From: Haloflavibacter putidus
Lineage (GTDB): Bacteria; Bacteroidota; Bacteroidia; Flavobacteriales; Flavobacteriaceae
Direction of reading: 5' to 3'
Length of the DNA: 56,013 bases
Assembly: GCF_006546625.1 (NCBI RefSeq)
Contig: NZ_VIAR01000016.1
Span: forward strand, 1 to 56,013
The notes beneath the pieces are model-generated. The model saw nothing but the letters and a program-made list of their open reading frames with translations, made no database searches and was not told where the DNA came from. Below are positions 36,985-41,558 of the stretch, piece by piece. The position numbers were made by a program, and so were the translations under genes. The first letter of the stretch is position 1. The number at the start of each line of letters is the position of its first letter.

Positions 36985-37881
36985 ATGAAAAAATCAAATA
37001 TTTTACTGTCTGTTTGCATGATTACTTATAATCATGAAGCCTATATAAAGCAAGCCATTGAAAGTATTAAAAGGCAAAAAGTAGATTTTGATTTTGAGTT
37101 AGTTATTTCTAACGATTGTTCTACAGATAAAACACATCAAGAAATTTTAAAAAGCACAGCATCATTGCCGCAAAACATTCAAGTTCGTTATTTTAATCAA
37201 AAAGAGAATCTTGGTATGTTTGGTAATTTTACTTTTGCTTTAAAAGAATGTAGAGGGAAATACATTAGCTTTTGCGAGGGAGATGATTACTGGTTGGATG
37301 ACTATAAAATAGCAAAGCAAGTAGATTTTTTAGAAAAAAATAAAGCGTATAGCTTGATTACAGGAGGTATAAAAGAATATCACCAAGATAGCAGTAAAGT
37401 AAAATATATAGGCAAGAAAGAAGCGTATACCTTTACCTATAAAGATATGATTGTACGTAACCATTGCCATACGTGTTCTACCACTATTCGTAATTTTATT
37501 AAATATGAAGAAAATTTTCAATTATATCAAGATAGAGGTAGTGATTCACAAGTTTGGCTACGTGCTTTGGGAAAAGAACAAAAAGGCTGGTACTCTAATG
37601 AAACATTTGCCTTATATAGAAGACATGAAGGCGGAGTATCTATAATAAACGATCAAGAAAATACGGGGTATGAAAATAGAATTAAAGCTTGTAAGCGAAA
37701 AATTAATAAAGCAGAGTTTTGGAATACTTATTTTGATGAGTCTGCTACTTCCTCTGTATTAAAGGTTAAAAAGAAAATGTATAAACGCATGTTTAAAACT
37801 GCTTGGCAACATAAAAAATATTTCGAAAGCTTATCTTTTTTGGCGTATCTTTTAACTATACCAAGTCCAAATGATAATTAA
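36985..37881 (+). CDS. Family 2 glycosyltransferase
   Basis: This inverting GT-A enzyme of 298 residues has LLSVCMITYNHEAYIKQAIE at the start, ELVISNDCSTDKTHQEIL near residue 38, and GKYISFCEGDDYWLDDYK near residue 91, where CEGDDYW is the metal and donor site of a common bacterial subfamily. KYFESLSFLAYLL near the C-terminus may touch the membrane. It is the last complete gene of the AT-rich block; an epimerase remnant starts 31 bp later. Confidence 0.92.
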   Translation: MKKSNILLSVCMITYNHEAYIKQAIESIKRQKVDFDFELVISNDCSTDKTHQEILKSTASLPQNIQVRYFNQKENLGMFGNFTFALKECRGKYISFCEGDDYWLDDYKIAKQVDFLEKNKAYSLITGGIKEYHQDSSKVKYIGKKEAYTFTYKDMIVRNHCHTCSTTIRNFIKYEENFQLYQDRGSDSQVWLRALGKEQKGWYSNETFALYRRHEGGVSIINDQENTGYENRIKACKRKINKAEFWNTYFDESATSSVLKVKKKMYKRMFKTAWQHKKYFESLSFLAYLLTIPSPNDN

Positions 37882-37912
37882 ATTTTTCTTTATTTAAAAA
37901 ATATTCTAACGT

Positions 37913-37978
37913 ATGACTATCAACGAAGGGAATAGAAAAAAACTTCTCATTACCGGCGCAGCTGGGTTTAACCCGTGA
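37913..37978 (+). pseudogene. 5' remnant of a nucleotide-sugar epimerase/dehydratase gene
   Basis: An ATG frame gives MTINEGNRKKLLITGAAGF, the N-terminus and first Gly-rich NAD motif of an SDR epimerase, and then runs into the left terminus of the GIY-YIG element and stops at TGA (adding Asn-Pro). The motif should continue IGxxL. The rest of this gene is not found; the complete epimerase gene 355 bp downstream has its own start and a different N-terminus. Confidence 0.75.
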
Positions 37979-38319
37979 AATAATGGCAAAATGGATAGTT
38001 ATTATTACATATATGTACTTTTAAGTGAGAAAGACGGTAAAAAATATACGGGTTATACAACCAATTTGCCATTAGGAATTGAGGCTCATCACAAAGGAAA
38101 AGTAAAATCAACAAAGCACCGTAGACCATTAAAATTGATTTACTTTGAAGGTTGTTTGTCGCAAGATGATGCTATTAAGAGAGAAAAATATTTAAAAACG
38201 CACTATGGAAAAATGTATTTGGGGAAGCGCCTCAAATCTTATTTATCCTGTCAAACTAAAAACAAAAACAAATAACGCCTTAAGAAATCTAATACTTGTT
38301 TAACAGGATTTCACAGGTC
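37970..38319 (+). mobile_element. Candidate GIY-YIG mini-element, copy 1
   Basis: The left terminus AACCCGTGAAATAA and the right terminus GGATTTCACAGGTC are inverted repeats (ACCCGTGAAAT against ACCTGTGAAAT). Between them is one GIY-YIG frame and about 30 non-coding bases at the 3' side. It sits exactly in the Gly motif of an epimerase remnant and at the right border of the AT-rich block. Exact ends and any target duplication are uncertain. Confidence 0.6.
37991..38275 (+). CDS. GIY-YIG nuclease-domain protein (copy 1, active site altered)
   Basis: The 94 residues match the single-domain GIY-YIG family: YYYIYVLLSEKDGKKYTGYT holds the two strand motifs, LKLIYFEGCLSQDDAIKREK the helix with the conserved Glu, and YLKTHYGKMYLGKRLKSYL the C-terminal part. 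The usual catalytic Arg (LxxR before the H of EAHHKG) is Gly here (NLPLGIEAH; codon GGA, one change from AGA), so nuclease activity may be lost. About 59 of 85 aligned residues equal the copy at 39799. It ends with a Lys/Asn tail. Confidence 0.88.
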   Translation: MDSYYYIYVLLSEKDGKKYTGYTTNLPLGIEAHHKGKVKSTKHRRPLKLIYFEGCLSQDDAIKREKYLKTHYGKMYLGKRLKSYLSCQTKNKNK

Positions 38320-38332
38320 AAGAAGATAAGTA

Positions 38333-39379
38333 ATGAACTTAGAACAATTTAATCAGCTTAAAGATAATAAGATTTTAGTTACTGGTGCCGCTGGGTTCAT
38401 CGGTTTCCATTTATGCAGACAATTGCTGGAACAAGGTTATTCGTTAATCGGATTAGACAACCTAAACAACTATTACGATGTTGGTTTAAAATTTGACCGT
38501 CTGGCAGAATTGGGTATAGAAAAAGACGACGCTTCCTATTATAACAAGCTTTGTACTTCTTCAAAACATGCCAACTTTCAGTTTATACAACTAAAAATAG
38601 AAGATCGCGTCCAGTTGCCTAAATTGTTTCAGCAACATAATTTCGATAAAGTCTGTAATTTAGCAGCCCAGGCCGGCGTGCGTTATAGTATAGAAAACCC
38701 GGAAGTGTATGCAGATTCAAACATCAGCGGGTTTTTAAATCTATTGGAATGCATGCGTCATAACGAAGTGAAAAAATTGGTTTATGCCAGTAGTTCTAGC
38801 GTATATGGTAACAACAAAAAAGTGCCATTTGCCGAAACCGATAATGTAGATGAACCCATAAGTGTCTATGCGGCTACAAAAAAATCGAACGAATTAATGG
38901 CGCATACCTATAGCCACCTTTACGGAATAGAATGTATAGGTTTGCGCTTTTTTACAGTTTACGGACCGTGGGGTCGCCCGGATATGGCATTATTTTTATT
39001 TACCGATGCCATCTTAAAAGACAAACCCATAAAAGTATTTAACCACGGCGATTTGTCGCGCGATTTCACCTTTATAGATGATATTATTACCGGAGTCGTA
39101 AATACTTTAGAAAAAAGTTTACCTAATAAAAGCTTGCACGAAGTTTATAATATAGGCAATTCCAGTCCGGTACAATTAATAGATTTTATAAAAGCCATAG
39201 AAGAAGCAACGAGACGCGAAGCAAAAAAGGAAATGCTCCCCATGCAACCCGGCGATGTAGCAACCACCTACGCAGATGTTTCTAAACTCAAAAGAGATTT
39301 CAATTACGCCCCCAACACCAAGGTAAAAGAAGGAATTCGTAGTTTTGTGGAGTGGTATAAGGGGTATTATGGGGTTTAG
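38333..39379 (+). CDS. UDP-glucuronate 4-epimerase-like SDR enzyme
   Basis: The enzyme likely epimerises UDP-GlcA to UDP-GalA. The 348 residues show NAD motif ILVTGAAGFIGFHLCRQLLE near residue 14, LDNLNNYYDVGLKFDRLAEL (the insertion typical of the CapI/LpsL group), AAQAGVRYSIENPEVY, YASSSSVYG, and YAATKKSNELMAHTY with the catalytic YxxxK, then RFFTVYGPWGRPDMALF. Its composition is higher in G+C than the genes upstream (24 of 60 at 38701-38760). The ATG is 14 bp after the GIY-YIG element. Confidence 0.92.
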   Translation: MNLEQFNQLKDNKILVTGAAGFIGFHLCRQLLEQGYSLIGLDNLNNYYDVGLKFDRLAELGIEKDDASYYNKLCTSSKHANFQFIQLKIEDRVQLPKLFQQHNFDKVCNLAAQAGVRYSIENPEVYADSNISGFLNLLECMRHNEVKKLVYASSSSVYGNNKKVPFAETDNVDEPISVYAATKKSNELMAHTYSHLYGIECIGLRFFTVYGPWGRPDMALFLFTDAILKDKPIKVFNHGDLSRDFTFIDDIITGVVNTLEKSLPNKSLHEVYNIGNSSPVQLIDFIKAIEEATRREAKKEMLPMQPGDVATTYADVSKLKRDFNYAPNTKVKEGIRSFVEWYKGYYGV

Positions 39380-39399
39380 TTGAATAGTCGAAAAAACGT

Positions 39400-39600
39400 A
39401 TATTCGAATAGTCTAGAGAGTCAAGGGTTGAAGAGTCAGGAGTCGAAGAGTCAAGAGTTGAAGAGTCAAGAGTTGAAGAGTCAAAGAGTTAGGGAACATC
39501 AGTTTACCTAATTAAGTCCCAAGACTAATGATTACAGACTAATGACTATCGACTACCGACTAATGACTAATGACTAATGACCACCGACTAAAGACTCCTA
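39400..39600. repeat. Heptamer-type strings: GAGTCAAGAGTTGAA then GACTAAT
   Basis: At 39412-39490 the units are GAGTCAAGAGTTGAA and relatives; at 39520-39600 they are GACTAATGACTAATGAC and relatives. The purine-rich strings stand next to the upstream gene end, the ACT strings next to the downstream gene start. Confidence 0.75.
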
Positions 39601-39771
39601 CTAATAATAAAGAGTATGAATAATTTTAAATTTGAAGAATTAAAAGTATATCAAAAGAGTTTAGACTTCGTTGATCTTATATATGCACAGGTAAAAACCT
39701 TTCCAAAATCTGAACGCTATAATCTCAGTTCCCAATTCCGTAGGGCTTCAACTTCAATTCCCTTAAATATT

Positions 39772-40062
39772 CGACCTGTGAAATAAATTCAAAGCCTTAT
39801 GAAAGATTTTTATTACATTTACGTCCTGCAAAGCGAAGTCGATGGCAAAAACTATACGGGTTATACTCAGGATTTGAATTTACGATTTGAGCAACATAAT
39901 AAAGGCTATGTAGAATCTACAAAAAATCGAAGACCGTTTAAAATTATTTATTTTGAAGCTTGTTTATGTCAAAATGATGCGCTGAAAAGGGAAAAATACC
40001 TTAAAACCCACTACGGTAAAATGTTCTTAAAAAATAGACTCAAATCGTATTTCATAGGTTAG
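39772..40062 (+). mobile_element. Candidate GIY-YIG mini-element, copy 2
   Basis: This 291-bp insert lies inside the four-helix-bundle gene. The left terminus GACCTGTGAAATA and the right terminus TATTTCATAGGTT are inverted repeats with two mismatches. Nearly the whole insert is the GIY-YIG frame, and the right terminus is also its last codons. No transposase and no clear target duplication are seen. The boundaries are set by restoring the host gene frame; a shift of one or two bases (CG at both sides) is possible. Confidence 0.75.
39799..40062 (+). CDS. GIY-YIG nuclease-domain protein (copy 2, active site intact)
   Basis: The 87 residues comprise only the GIY-YIG nuclease domain: FYYIYVLQSEVDGKNYTGYT near residue 4 holds the two Tyr motifs, QDLNLRFEQHNKG carries the catalytic Arg and the following His, and FKIIYFEACLCQNDALKREK then YLKTHYGKMF carries the conserved Glu. 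There is no separate DNA-binding domain. The family cuts DNA in repair and in homing endonucleases. It starts 12 bases after the premature stop of the interrupted host gene and ends exactly at the insert border. Confidence 0.9.
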   Translation: MKDFYYIYVLQSEVDGKNYTGYTQDLNLRFEQHNKGYVESTKNRRPFKIIYFEACLCQNDALKREKYLKTHYGKMFLKNRLKSYFIG

Positions 40063-40388
40063 ACGGAAGGTCAAGGAAATACGAATTTGCAATTTAACAG
40101 ATATATTATGATTGCAAAGTCCTCAGTAAATGAATGTATCGTATGCAATACTATTGCCAAGCGTCAAAATTATATAACCGATAAAGAATATGATAAAAAT
40201 CGAAAAGATTTAGTTGAAATCTCAAAAATGTTAACTAAGTTAAGCCAATATTTAAAAAGAGAGTAAATTATAGGGTCAAGGGGTCAAGAGTCGATAAGTA
40301 AGGAATCAAAGATTGAGTCTATTCAATTAAGTCCCAAGACCAAAAACTACCGACTACAGACTCACGACTCACGACTAAAGACTAACAA

Positions 40389-41558
40389 ATGAAAATCACC
40401 ATCTTCGACGGTTCCTTTAAAACCACCGCTTTTATCCGGCGCTTAATGCAAGGCTTGGTTAAAAATGGGGTGCAGGTTAGTGTTATAGGTTTTAATGAAG
40501 ACAACCCTAATCCGGTGTCCGGGGTAAACTATAGAAGCTTGGGCAGTAACCAAAATAAGTTGAGTTTTATAAAAACCAGTCTAAGCTTAGCTTTAAGATC
40601 TCGATCTTTATCAAAAATCACCTCTACTTTAAATTTTCTTGCTAAAGGTAAACGCAAAGCCTTACAAAACCAAAATCTAGATTTAGTTTTACACGATCTT
40701 CAGCCAGATATTGTTCACTTGCAATGGCCATCCTTATTGCCATGGATGGAGCCCTATTTGGAAAAAGAGAGTTTTAAAGTTATTTTAAGTCAGCGCGGGT
40801 TTCATACCAATGTGCGTCCCTTTGTAAACAAACAAAATTTTGATTATTTGCAGAAAATATATCCACAATTAGATGGTTTACATTCGGTCTCCGAAGCAAT
40901 TTCTAAAGTAGGTAAAAAAATAGGCACTCCGAAAACTAAAATAGATCGTGTGGTATATACCGGATTACATTTAGCAGATTTTCCTTTTGAAGTGAAAGTA
41001 GCAAACCACAAAAAATTGCAATTGTTATCGGTAGGCAGGCCGCACTGGAAAAAAGATTATCCTACAGCTATAAAAGCCTGTGCAATTTTAAAAGAAAAAA
41101 ACATATCCTTTCATTACACCATCGTAGGAGGGGAGGGCGATGAAGAAAGTTTGTTTTTGATACACGAATTGGGATTGGAGAATCATATTAGCCTTACGGG
41201 GAAACTTCCCCAACAAGAAGTTTTTAAAAAAATGCGGGAAGCTGATTTGTTTTTATTGCCAAGTATAGAAGAAGGCATCGCCAATGTTGCAGTAGAAGCG
41301 ATGGCTTTAGGTACGCCGGTAATTTCAACTAATTGTGGCGGAATGGAAGAGTTGATTAAAAACAAGAAAGAAGGTTGGATAATACCCACTCGCGATGAAG
41401 TGGCCTTGGCAGAAGCTGTTGAAGAATTTATTGCTTTAGAAGAGTCTGAAGTAATAGAAGTCATTAAAAATGCCAGAAAAAAAGTAGAATTCCAACACCA
41501 AGAATCAAAAATGGTAAGAGATATGATCGACTTGTATAAGGCTGTAATAAAAGACTAA
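40389..41558 (+). CDS. Family 4 glycosyltransferase
   Basis: The 389 residues begin MKITIFDGSFKTTAFIRRLM and contain LQPDIVHLQWPSLLPWM near residue 107, VSEAISKVGKKIGTPKTKID, LLSVGRPHWKKDYPTAIKAC near residue 213, and the donor-site motif FLLPSIEEGIANVAVEAMAL near residue 290 with GTPVISTNCGGMEELI. It is a GT-B retaining enzyme on the cytosolic side of the membrane. It lies alone: 122 bp of tandem strings upstream and a 1.6-kb repeat spacer downstream. Confidence 0.93.
   Translation: MKITIFDGSFKTTAFIRRLMQGLVKNGVQVSVIGFNEDNPNPVSGVNYRSLGSNQNKLSFIKTSLSLALRSRSLSKITSTLNFLAKGKRKALQNQNLDLVLHDLQPDIVHLQWPSLLPWMEPYLEKESFKVILSQRGFHTNVRPFVNKQNFDYLQKIYPQLDGLHSVSEAISKVGKKIGTPKTKIDRVVYTGLHLADFPFEVKVANHKKLQLLSVGRPHWKKDYPTAIKACAILKEKNISFHYTIVGGEGDEESLFLIHELGLENHISLTGKLPQQEVFKKMREADLFLLPSIEEGIANVAVEAMALGTPVISTNCGGMEELIKNKKEGWIIPTRDEVALAEAVEEFIALEESEVIEVIKNARKKVEFQHQESKMVRDMIDLYKAVIKD

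What the first reader, a model, noticed from the sequence alone, without database searches (positions are those of the whole stretch)
39616..40266. A 291-bp GIY-YIG mini-element with terminal inverted repeats splits a four-helix-bundle gene and can be removed in frame
Seen: the two halves of a 119-codon IVP-type gene flank a segment that is almost wholly one GIY-YIG frame. Its termini GACCTGTGAAATA and TATTTCATAGGTT are inverted repeats with two mismatches, and joining 39771 to 40063 restores the host frame within the conserved SIPLNI-(A/T)EG motif. No transposase is present. Inference: a minimal self-mobile element whose only protein is a nuclease, like a homing endonuclease gene, but with transposon-like ends and no intron or intein. 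I know of no described element with this exact structure.
Basis: partly seen in the sequence, partly recalled or inferred. Interest (0 to 1): 0.88.

Follow-up and report, generated by a model that had tools for sequence, protein, structure and literature searches.

The report
Tiny nuclease-only jumping gene
A roughly 290-letter piece of DNA that encodes only one small DNA-cutting protein and ends in matching inverted repeats appears to be a mobile element that lands at fixed, conserved spots inside bacterial genes, and one branch of the family carries a replacement start for the gene it lands in.

Summary
At 39772-40062 a 291-bp segment, almost wholly an 87-residue GIY-YIG frame with 13-bp inverted termini, splits an IVP (four-helix-bundle) gene. 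Of the 80 closest relatives, 79 have such termini (14 of 435 displaced windows; 0 of 28 distant GIY-YIG genes), and left and right ends co-vary. Insertions sit at conserved motifs of multicopy genes: epimerase GGAGF^IG, IVP NI^AEG, REP transposase, RHS, ORF6N. Matching empty sites exist, one in the window's own genome. Elements 89% identical (window, Psychroflexus longus) have no detectable flanking homology within 2.5 kb. So this is most likely a mobile element whose only protein is a UPF0213/Slx1-like nuclease. In the epimerase lineage it brings a 74-79-nt 'cap' (start codon and N-terminal codons up to the cut) that keeps the host gene open; cap similarity follows the element, not the host gene. 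I found no description in the held papers; fungal mitochondrial endonuclease ORFs that replace a gene end are the nearest precedent. Cutting by the nuclease and use of the termini are inferred.

The parts
39616..39771 (+). N-terminal half of the IVP (23S_rRNA_IVP / four-helix-bundle) gene; its frame runs on to a stop at 39784-39786 inside the left terminus
   Evidence: PF05635 positions 1-47, TIGR02436
39773..39785 (.). left terminal inverted repeat GACCTGTGAAATA of element 1
39799..40062 (+). GIY-YIG nuclease ORF of element 1, 87 aa; conserved residues R29, H33, E65 present
   Evidence: AF2 model pLDDT 91.8
40048..40060 (.). right terminal inverted repeat TATTTCATAGGTT of element 1; it encodes the last residues (YFIG) of the nuclease
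40063..40266 (+). C-terminal half of the IVP gene, no start codon at its head
   Evidence: PF05635 positions 49-105
37913..37969 (+). relic 5' end of an epimerase gene (MTINEGNRKKLLITGAAGF), cut at GAAGF^
37970..37982 (.). left terminal inverted repeat AACCCGTGAAATA of element 2
37991..38275 (+). GIY-YIG ORF of element 2 (69% identical to element 1); conserved Arg29 is Gly, the only such case of 83 rows, so probably an inactive nuclease (inference)
38245..38309 (.). 65-bp piece with its own 12-bp ends (11/12) nested inside the right terminus of element 2; also in L032 and L058
38307..38319 (.). right terminal inverted repeat GATTTCACAGGTC of element 2
38320..38398 (+). 79-nt 'cap': leader, start codon (38333) and 22 codons (MNLEQFNQLKDNKILVTGAAGF) that replace the severed 5' end of the epimerase gene
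   Evidence: two element-free homologues lack the first 11 residues
38333..39379 (+). intact NAD-dependent sugar-nucleotide epimerase gene (host gene of element 2), N-terminus supplied by the cap

Best explanation
This is a TIR-bounded, about 290-bp mobile element whose only protein is a small GIY-YIG nuclease. Shown by comparison: the two ends are conserved and co-vary; lineages sit at fixed codon motifs of multicopy gene families; filled and empty sites exist within the genus; similar elements sit in IVP genes of different genera with unlike flanks; the nuclease is under purifying selection. Shown for the epimerase lineage: a 74-79-nt cap lies between the right end and the cut site, contains a start codon and N-terminal codons, and is more alike between similar elements than between similar host genes. 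Inferred: the nuclease cuts the target motif and perhaps the element ends; host repair joins the element there, helped by a few bases of shared sequence; in the epimerase lineage the donor's cap is copied with the element, so the invaded gene gets a foreign but open 5' end, the old 5' end is left as a relic, and the cut site is rebuilt. Tandem units fit repeated insertion at the rebuilt site. In the window, element 1 broke an IVP gene; element 2 sits upstream of an intact epimerase and has probably lost activity (R29G, nested piece).
For: TIRs at 79 of 80 relatives, against 14 of 435 displaced windows and 0 of 28 distant GIY-YIG loci. Left/right co-variation over 81 loci: 11.46 of 13 matches against 10.26 shuffled, with matching changes on both sides at positions 2, 6, 8, 9, 11. 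Target labels cluster on the protein tree: 24 changes against 47.0 shuffled, 0 of 200 as low. Target family confirmed for 19 of 20 flanking frames tested. IVP locus filled in G014 and G009; intact in G000:C10 and G010 with both neighbouring regions matching, and in G003 and G015 with the downstream one. Window against L046: element 256/288 identical, no flanking match within 2.5 kb; 19 of 28 pairs of the eight NI^AEG loci have no flanking match at all. L048 against L049: element 278/288, IVP N-halves 7/31 aa. dN/dS 0.04-0.20 in six of seven pairs. Cap length 77.7 (SD 1.4) nt in 26 loci while the start codon lies 33-75 nt from the cut. Cap similarity follows the GIY protein (partial r 0.244, 9 of 2000 permutations), not the host gene (-0.03); relic similarity follows the host gene (0.133, 62 of 2000). 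Tandem units in L109 and L094. Patchy: 1 of 148 genomes of the order, the window's own, at E<=1e-25.
Against: No cleavage or mobility assay exists. No GIY-YIG transposase is known to me (recalled). The most recent pair, L048/L049, does share homology further out: 73.5% over 558 nt beginning 295-332 nt to the right and 72% over 89 nt beginning 98-261 nt to the left, so repair through distant homology is possible there. The nuclease has no visible DNA-binding domain, so how it finds gene motifs is unexplained. Junctions are not uniform: some joins look exact (L118, L067), others lose or change a few bases (IVP sites). Seven epimerase caps match their own relic over most of their length at 80% or more; three are tandem units, but L055/L058, L071 and L097 could be local duplications. 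The partial correlations are modest. dN/dS is 0.53 in L048/L049 (few changes). 25 of 83 rows were not assigned to a target gene. Unseen intermediate hosts are always possible.
Confidence: 0.68

Rival explanations
1. An ordinary free-standing homing endonuclease gene: the GIY-YIG protein cuts the empty allele and homologous repair copies the gene; the inverted repeats are incidental (for example operator or transcription signals).
For: Insertion at conserved codon motifs, lineage-specific targets, filled and empty sites, and a cap that could be exchanged through homology. L048/L049, L048/L054 and L049/L054 share neighbouring DNA beyond the IVP gene. T4 seg genes are free-standing GIY-YIG homing endonucleases in intergenic regions (PMC2988022, passages).
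Against: Ends are conserved at 79 of 80 loci and co-vary. 19 of 28 pairs of NI^AEG loci, with elements up to 89% identical, show no flanking match within 2.5 kb, and 4 more only 21-36 nt. I-TevI uses a separate DNA-binding domain (PMC2988022 passages); none is seen here.
Confidence: 0.25
2. A passive element moved in trans by another enzyme, such as a REP-associated tyrosine transposase, with the GIY-YIG gene as cargo.
For: Short ORF-less pieces with similar ends exist (65-bp nested piece 38245-38309; 32-nt palindrome in L055 and L058), as in trans-mobilised elements. REP transposase genes occur as targets.
Against: The GIY-YIG coding sequence is under purifying selection and its phylogeny tracks the target, which a cargo gene need not do. 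Nothing but the GIY-YIG frame lies between the ends in the window.
Confidence: 0.05
3. About the cap only: it is a 77-bp target-site duplication made at each insertion, not a donor-borne segment.
For: Nearly constant length, 74-79 nt in 26 loci, and long relic/cap matches: L055 76/78, L109 71/75, L094 66/70, L058 72/79, L071 65/78, L088 63/76, L097 62/77, weaker L065 56/78. 22 of 28 epimerase loci show a repeat above control.
Against: L109, L094 and L088 relics are preceded by a right terminus, so they are earlier caps of a tandem. Cap similarity follows the element and not the host gene. W_EPI and L032 share a cap that two element-free homologues lack. None of 51 non-epimerase loci shows a repeat above control at the junction; four have repeats elsewhere in the flanks.
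Confidence: 0.2
4. A fixed part of IVP genes, a domesticated insert, or an intron/intein.
For: The frame is kept across the insert.
Against: The uninterrupted motif was read in 23 of 36 genus loci examined; of 98 PF05635 matches in 16 genomes only three genes are split by this insert. No Rfam match in 37800-40450. Stops at both ends rule out an intein.
Confidence: 0.02

Closest known systems
Free-standing GIY-YIG homing endonuclease genes (phage T4 seg genes; PMC2988022, passages seen)
   Same: A lone GIY-YIG nuclease gene at a specific site of or near a conserved gene; empty alleles exist.
   Different: Conserved co-varying terminal inverted repeats; no separate DNA-binding domain; found in genomes of many bacterial groups but only 1 relative among viral contigs.
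Fungal mitochondrial mobile endonuclease ORFs that replace a gene's 3' end (atp6, atp9, cox2, nad3; PMC3630166, passages seen)
   Same: The element brings a replacement gene end, so the invaded gene stays open; the native end remains as a relic.
   Different: There a C-terminal end, mostly LAGLIDADG (GIY-YIG at atp9), in mitochondria; here a 5' end with start codon, in bacteria, with inverted repeats.
Insertion sequences and MITEs (recalled)
   Same: Short, terminal inverted repeats, possible ORF-less derivatives, single protein.
   Different: No DDE, HUH, serine or tyrosine transposase; no target duplication seen at non-epimerase sites; target is a codon motif of particular gene families.
Transposable elements with a GIY-YIG protein beside another integrase (a casposon, PMC4046053; Mariner-related PGv-1, PMC3627910; passages seen)
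   Same: Terminal inverted repeats and a GIY-YIG protein in one element.
   Different: There GIY-YIG is an extra gene in a larger element; here it is the only gene.
UPF0213 / Slx1-type GIY-YIG nucleases (1zg2 BH0048; Slx1 7cq2)
   Same: Nearest sequence (E 1.3e-6) and folds (Foldseek E 3.1e-4 and 7.6e-4).
   Different: Those are chromosomal or eukaryotic proteins without mobile-element ends (recalled).

Membership tests
Free-standing homing endonuclease gene | nuclease of a homing family, alone in the element | tested here: met
   PF01541 E 7.1e-17; AF2 model and Foldseek
Free-standing homing endonuclease gene | cuts the empty allele at the insertion motif | not testable with these tools
   no assay; the conserved motif is only indirect
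Free-standing homing endonuclease gene | spreads by repair through flanking homology | tested here: inconclusive
   19 of 28 pairs of NI^AEG loci have no flanking match within 2.5 kb, 4 have only 21-36 nt; but 5 have longer ones, including the most recent pair L048/L049; unseen intermediates not excluded
Insertion sequence / DNA transposon | terminal inverted repeats | tested here: met
   79 of 80, co-variation
Insertion sequence / DNA transposon | transposase of a known catalytic type | tested here: not met
   only a GIY-YIG ORF within the ends in the window
Insertion sequence / DNA transposon | short target-site duplication | tested here: inconclusive
   none of 51 non-epimerase loci above control at the junction; duplications of a few bases were not tested
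Gene-end-replacing mobile ORF (fungal mitochondria) | element carries a replacement end of the host gene | tested here: met
   27 of 28 epimerase-site loci have an in-frame cap with start codon; the exception is L118
Gene-end-replacing mobile ORF (fungal mitochondria) | the end comes from the donor | tested here: met
   partial Mantel 0.244, 9 of 2000, against -0.03 for the host gene, over 25 loci; modest in size
Group I/II intron or intein | catalytic RNA, or open frame through both junctions | tested here: not met
   no Rfam match at E<=0.1; stops at 39784-39786 and 40060-40062

The most novel reading that the evidence does not exclude
A categorically new class of transposable element in which one 87-residue, single-domain GIY-YIG nuclease of the UPF0213/Slx1 type does the work of a transposase on co-varying inverted repeats, inserts at codon motifs of multicopy gene families without needing flanking homology, and in one lineage carries a 77-nt spare 5' gene end that lets it invade genes such as sugar-nucleotide epimerases without closing them. 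A parallel design would exist at tRNA genes (5' half of tRNA-Arg duplicated around a distant GIY-YIG gene).
Probability: 0.45. Interest if true: 0.92.

Novelty: new variant of a known kind. Interest (0 to 1): 0.8.

Why it matters
If the nuclease alone moves the element, this would be among the smallest self-mobile DNA elements and the first bacterial transposable element run by a GIY-YIG enzyme that I know of. The capped lineage shows how a selfish element can settle inside a conserved gene without closing it, by giving back the severed gene end, and it moves N-termini between enzyme families. It is testable with a two-plasmid assay, and a single small domain with gene-motif targets is of interest for site-specific DNA insertion.

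Tried and rejected
Intron, intein or translational bypass: rejected (no Rfam match; stops at both ends; the insert is almost all ORF). Anti-phage defence: no PADLOC match. Phage-borne spread: only 1 relative in viral contigs (L180, 60% identity, with different but related ends). Short ORF-less copies across the family: pattern searches gave 2 of 199 genomes (in G036 six copies of what looks like another repeat) and 1 of 249 (the window itself). The 77-bp target-site duplication was my own first reading (note), dropped in favour of a donor cap. Complementarity of the outer three bases of the ends (TTY...RAA) is not above shuffles, so the exact borders remain open by 1-3 bases.

Mended after re-checking: I first wrote that L048/L049 lack flanking homology and that the element therefore fails the homing test. 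Searches show homology further out in that pair, so that row is now inconclusive, the label went from 'categorically new' to 'new variant', and the odds of the best reading went from 0.72 to 0.68, plain homing from 0.20 to 0.25, the cargo rival from 0.06 to 0.05, the novel case from 0.50 to 0.45, interest from 0.82 to 0.80.

Errors of mine: the window's IVP-element protein was taken in a wrong frame; the tree was rebuilt and only that is used. L060 was labelled 'PLD' in the tree; Pfam says ORF6N domain protein. L100, L115 and the Y1 labels of L084, L090, L099 rest on motifs that I recalled and read. L058's right end was mis-picked (nested piece), so it was left out of the co-variation count, the cap-length statistics and the Mantel test; L117 (contig end) was left out of the co-variation count; L105 was left out of the Mantel test; L081, L092, L117 and L125 had too little flank. 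The TIR finder prefers pairs that match each other, which favours high left/right identity; the displaced-window control used the same finder and may include tandem copies. Independent-pair tests on starred branches had too few pairs for significance.

Paper searches with nothing on a bacterial element of this kind: (listings only). Passages were read of PMC3630166, PMC2988022, PMC4046053 and PMC3627910; other listed papers were not opened. Most subscription journals and all bioRxiv preprints are missing from that library.

Full report
What is in the window. The finding is confirmed at its coordinates. An IVP gene (PF05635; 'four helix bundle protein' by TIGR02436) is cut after codon 52. The insert 39772-40062 is almost wholly an 87-residue GIY-YIG frame. 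Its ends are 13-bp inverted repeats with two mismatches. The right repeat is coding (the last residues of the nuclease) and the left one is not. The insert is 97 codons, so the reading frame of the two IVP halves agrees. A second copy (69% identity) lies 1.8 kb upstream at 37970-38319 with the same type of ends (AACCCGTGAAATA / GATTTCACAGGTC). To its left is a 57-nt 5' end of an epimerase gene; to its right is a complete epimerase gene.

Relatives. A scan of 84,980 species genomes gave 307 relatives, of which the best 80 were returned. By record titles they are mostly Bacteroidota, with assemblies labelled Patescibacteria, Neomarinimicrobiota, Nitrospinae, Ignavibacteriae and others. With one finder, 79 of 80 have both ends (the miss, L117, is cut by a contig end), against 14 of 435 displaced windows and 0 of 28 distant GIY-YIG loci of the genus. 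Over 81 loci (80 relatives, two window copies and L032, less L058 and L117) the ends match each other at 11.46 of 13 positions, against 10.26 when partners are shuffled (largest of 1000 shuffles 10.56); 18 pairs are perfect, against 2.65 (largest 9). At five positions the same change occurs on both sides: position 2 CC 45, AA 28, TT 6, mismatched 2; position 6 GG 66, AA 10, mismatched 5; position 8 GG 61, CC 14, TT 4, mismatched 2; position 9 AA 78, GG 3; position 11 AA 79, GG 2. Related rows are not independent, and the tree-based paired test had too few supported pairs to decide.

Targets. I assigned the 83 rows by reading flanking frames: epimerase/dehydratase genes 28, IVP genes 13 (8 at the window's NI^AEG site, 5 at three other sites), REP tyrosine (Y1) transposase genes 6, RHS genes 3, 3' ends of Lcl_C / Fib_succ_major / FGE genes 4, ORF6N genes 3, another GIY-YIG gene 1, not assigned 25. 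Of 20 flanking frames given to Pfam or NCBIfam, 19 matched the expected family at E<=0.001 (for L060 the match replaced my first label); L100 matched nothing, and L116, L072 and L089 matched below the curated cut-off. Targets cluster on the protein tree: 24 changes against 47.0 shuffled; epimerase 5 against 23.7; IVP NI^AEG 3 against 7.8. The tree has few columns and many unresolved forks.

Mobility. In the genus (16 genomes) there are 98 PF05635 matches, and three IVP genes are split by this insert (G000, G014, G009), all at profile positions 45-49. The locus that is filled in G014 and G009 has an intact IVP gene in the window's own genome (G000:C10) and in G010, with both neighbouring regions matching, and in G003 and G015 with the downstream one. 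Element 1 and that of Psychroflexus longus (L046) are 256/288 identical, with no flanking match within 2.5 kb. Of the 28 pairs among the eight NI^AEG loci, 19 have no flanking match, 4 only 21-36 nt, and 5 longer ones. The most alike pair, Psychroflexus halocasei L048 and Mesonia L049, is 278/288 identical; the IVP N-halves share 7 of 31 residues and ungapped flanks 26/60 on the left and 36/60 on the right, but the downstream gene is homologous (73.5% over 558 nt from about 300 nt on). So near homology is not needed, while distant homology on one or both sides cannot be excluded for that pair. The nuclease is conserved by selection: dN/dS 0.04-0.20 in six of seven pairs, 0.53 in L048/L049. Occurrence is patchy: of 148 genomes of the order only the window's own has a close member.

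The cap. At epimerase sites, 27 of 28 loci have, between the right terminus and the rebuilt GGxGFIG motif, a stretch with an in-frame start codon; L118 is the exception and is a direct F^I insertion. The stretch measures 74-79 nt in 26 loci (mean 77.7, SD 1.4; L058 left out), while the start codon lies 33-75 nt from the cut. Two readings were compared. A local duplication is suggested by seven long relic/cap matches at 80% identity or more, but L109, L094 and L088 turned out to be tandem units whose 'relic' is an older cap; L109 and L094 still show an upstream GIY-YIG motif. A donor-borne cap is favoured: over 25 loci and 300 pairs, cap similarity (motif and first 12 nt left out) follows the GIY protein when the host gene is held constant (0.244; 9 of 2000 permutations as high) and not the host gene (-0.03; 1299 of 2000), whereas relic similarity follows the host gene (0.133; 62 of 2000) and not the GIY protein (-0.07; 1547 of 2000). 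The window's cap MNLEQF... is shared with L032 and resembles that of L055, whose epimerase body is only 21% identical. The element-free epimerases of G002 and G009 start directly with MKKILVTGAAGFIG or MKNYFITGIAGFIG. The most likely course is that the element and its cap are copied into the cut gene, leaving the old 5' end as a relic.

The protein. AlphaFold2 gives one compact GIY-YIG domain (pLDDT 91.8). The nearest solved folds are UPF0213 BH0048 and Slx1, a nuclease of branched DNA; the I-TevI catalytic domain is much weaker (E 0.39) (sequence search). Arg29, His33 and Glu65 are conserved in 82, 83 and 83 of 83; the one exception at 29 is the window's second copy (Gly), which also has a 65-bp piece with its own inverted ends inside its right terminus. 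That copy is therefore probably inactive. Element 1 looks intact. A link between a branched-DNA nuclease fold and hairpins formed by the termini is an idea only.

Comparison with known kinds. It works like a homing endonuclease gene in that it occupies a conserved motif and leaves empty sites. Whether it spreads through flanking homology is inconclusive here, and its conserved co-varying ends are not a feature of such genes as I know them. I do not file it with insertion sequences, because it has no known transposase type. Two described transposable elements carry a GIY-YIG protein as an extra gene beside other enzymes (PMC4046053, PMC3627910; passages). The cap has a precedent in fungal mitochondrial endonuclease ORFs that replace a gene's C-terminal end (PMC3630166, passages). 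My searches found no paper on such bacterial elements (open-licence library, listings). I therefore rate it a new variant, on the border of a new class; the two-plasmid test would decide.

Noticed in passing
L022 (G012:C12), L023/L033 (G006:C6); also L034 (G008:C29), L025, L024: Distant GIY-YIG genes (34-44% identity) stand between an exact copy of the 5' part of tRNA-Arg (32 nt in L022; 32 and 28 nt in the L023/L033 tandem) and the intact tRNA-Arg: the same 'capped' design at a tRNA gene, cut near the anticodon arm. L034 has a 22-nt copy between the GIY-YIG gene and the intact tRNA (with an assembly gap); L025 has none by exact match. L024 has a tRNA-Leu downstream.
   Followed up: partly
L007:1397-1734 and downstream (G000:C11): A GIY-YIG gene between an intact tRNA-Asn and a degenerate tRNA-Asn-like copy with short palindromes.
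   Followed up: no
window 39417-39490, 39523-39596, 40336-40385: The IVP gene is flanked on both sides by degenerate 7-15-bp tandem repeats (GACTAAT, AGAGTCAAGAGTTGA type); some other IVP genes of the genus have similar runs next to them.
   Followed up: no
L055:2947-2978, L058:2947-2978, L125 from 320: ORF-less pieces with the same kind of ends; in L055 and L058 a 32-nt palindrome stands between the relic and the element.
   Followed up: partly
L158-L163 (G036:C1): One Flavobacteriaceae genome has six palindromes CCYGTGAAAT...ATTTCACRGG at scattered places, like a REP family with a core similar to the termini studied here.
   Followed up: no
L119:2763-2942: One element has inserted into another GIY-YIG gene (PF01541 match of the flank).
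   Followed up: no
L180, about 1460-1765: The only relative in viral contigs (60% identity) has ends TTTACCCCGT...ACGGGGTGAA with a different inner part.
   Followed up: no
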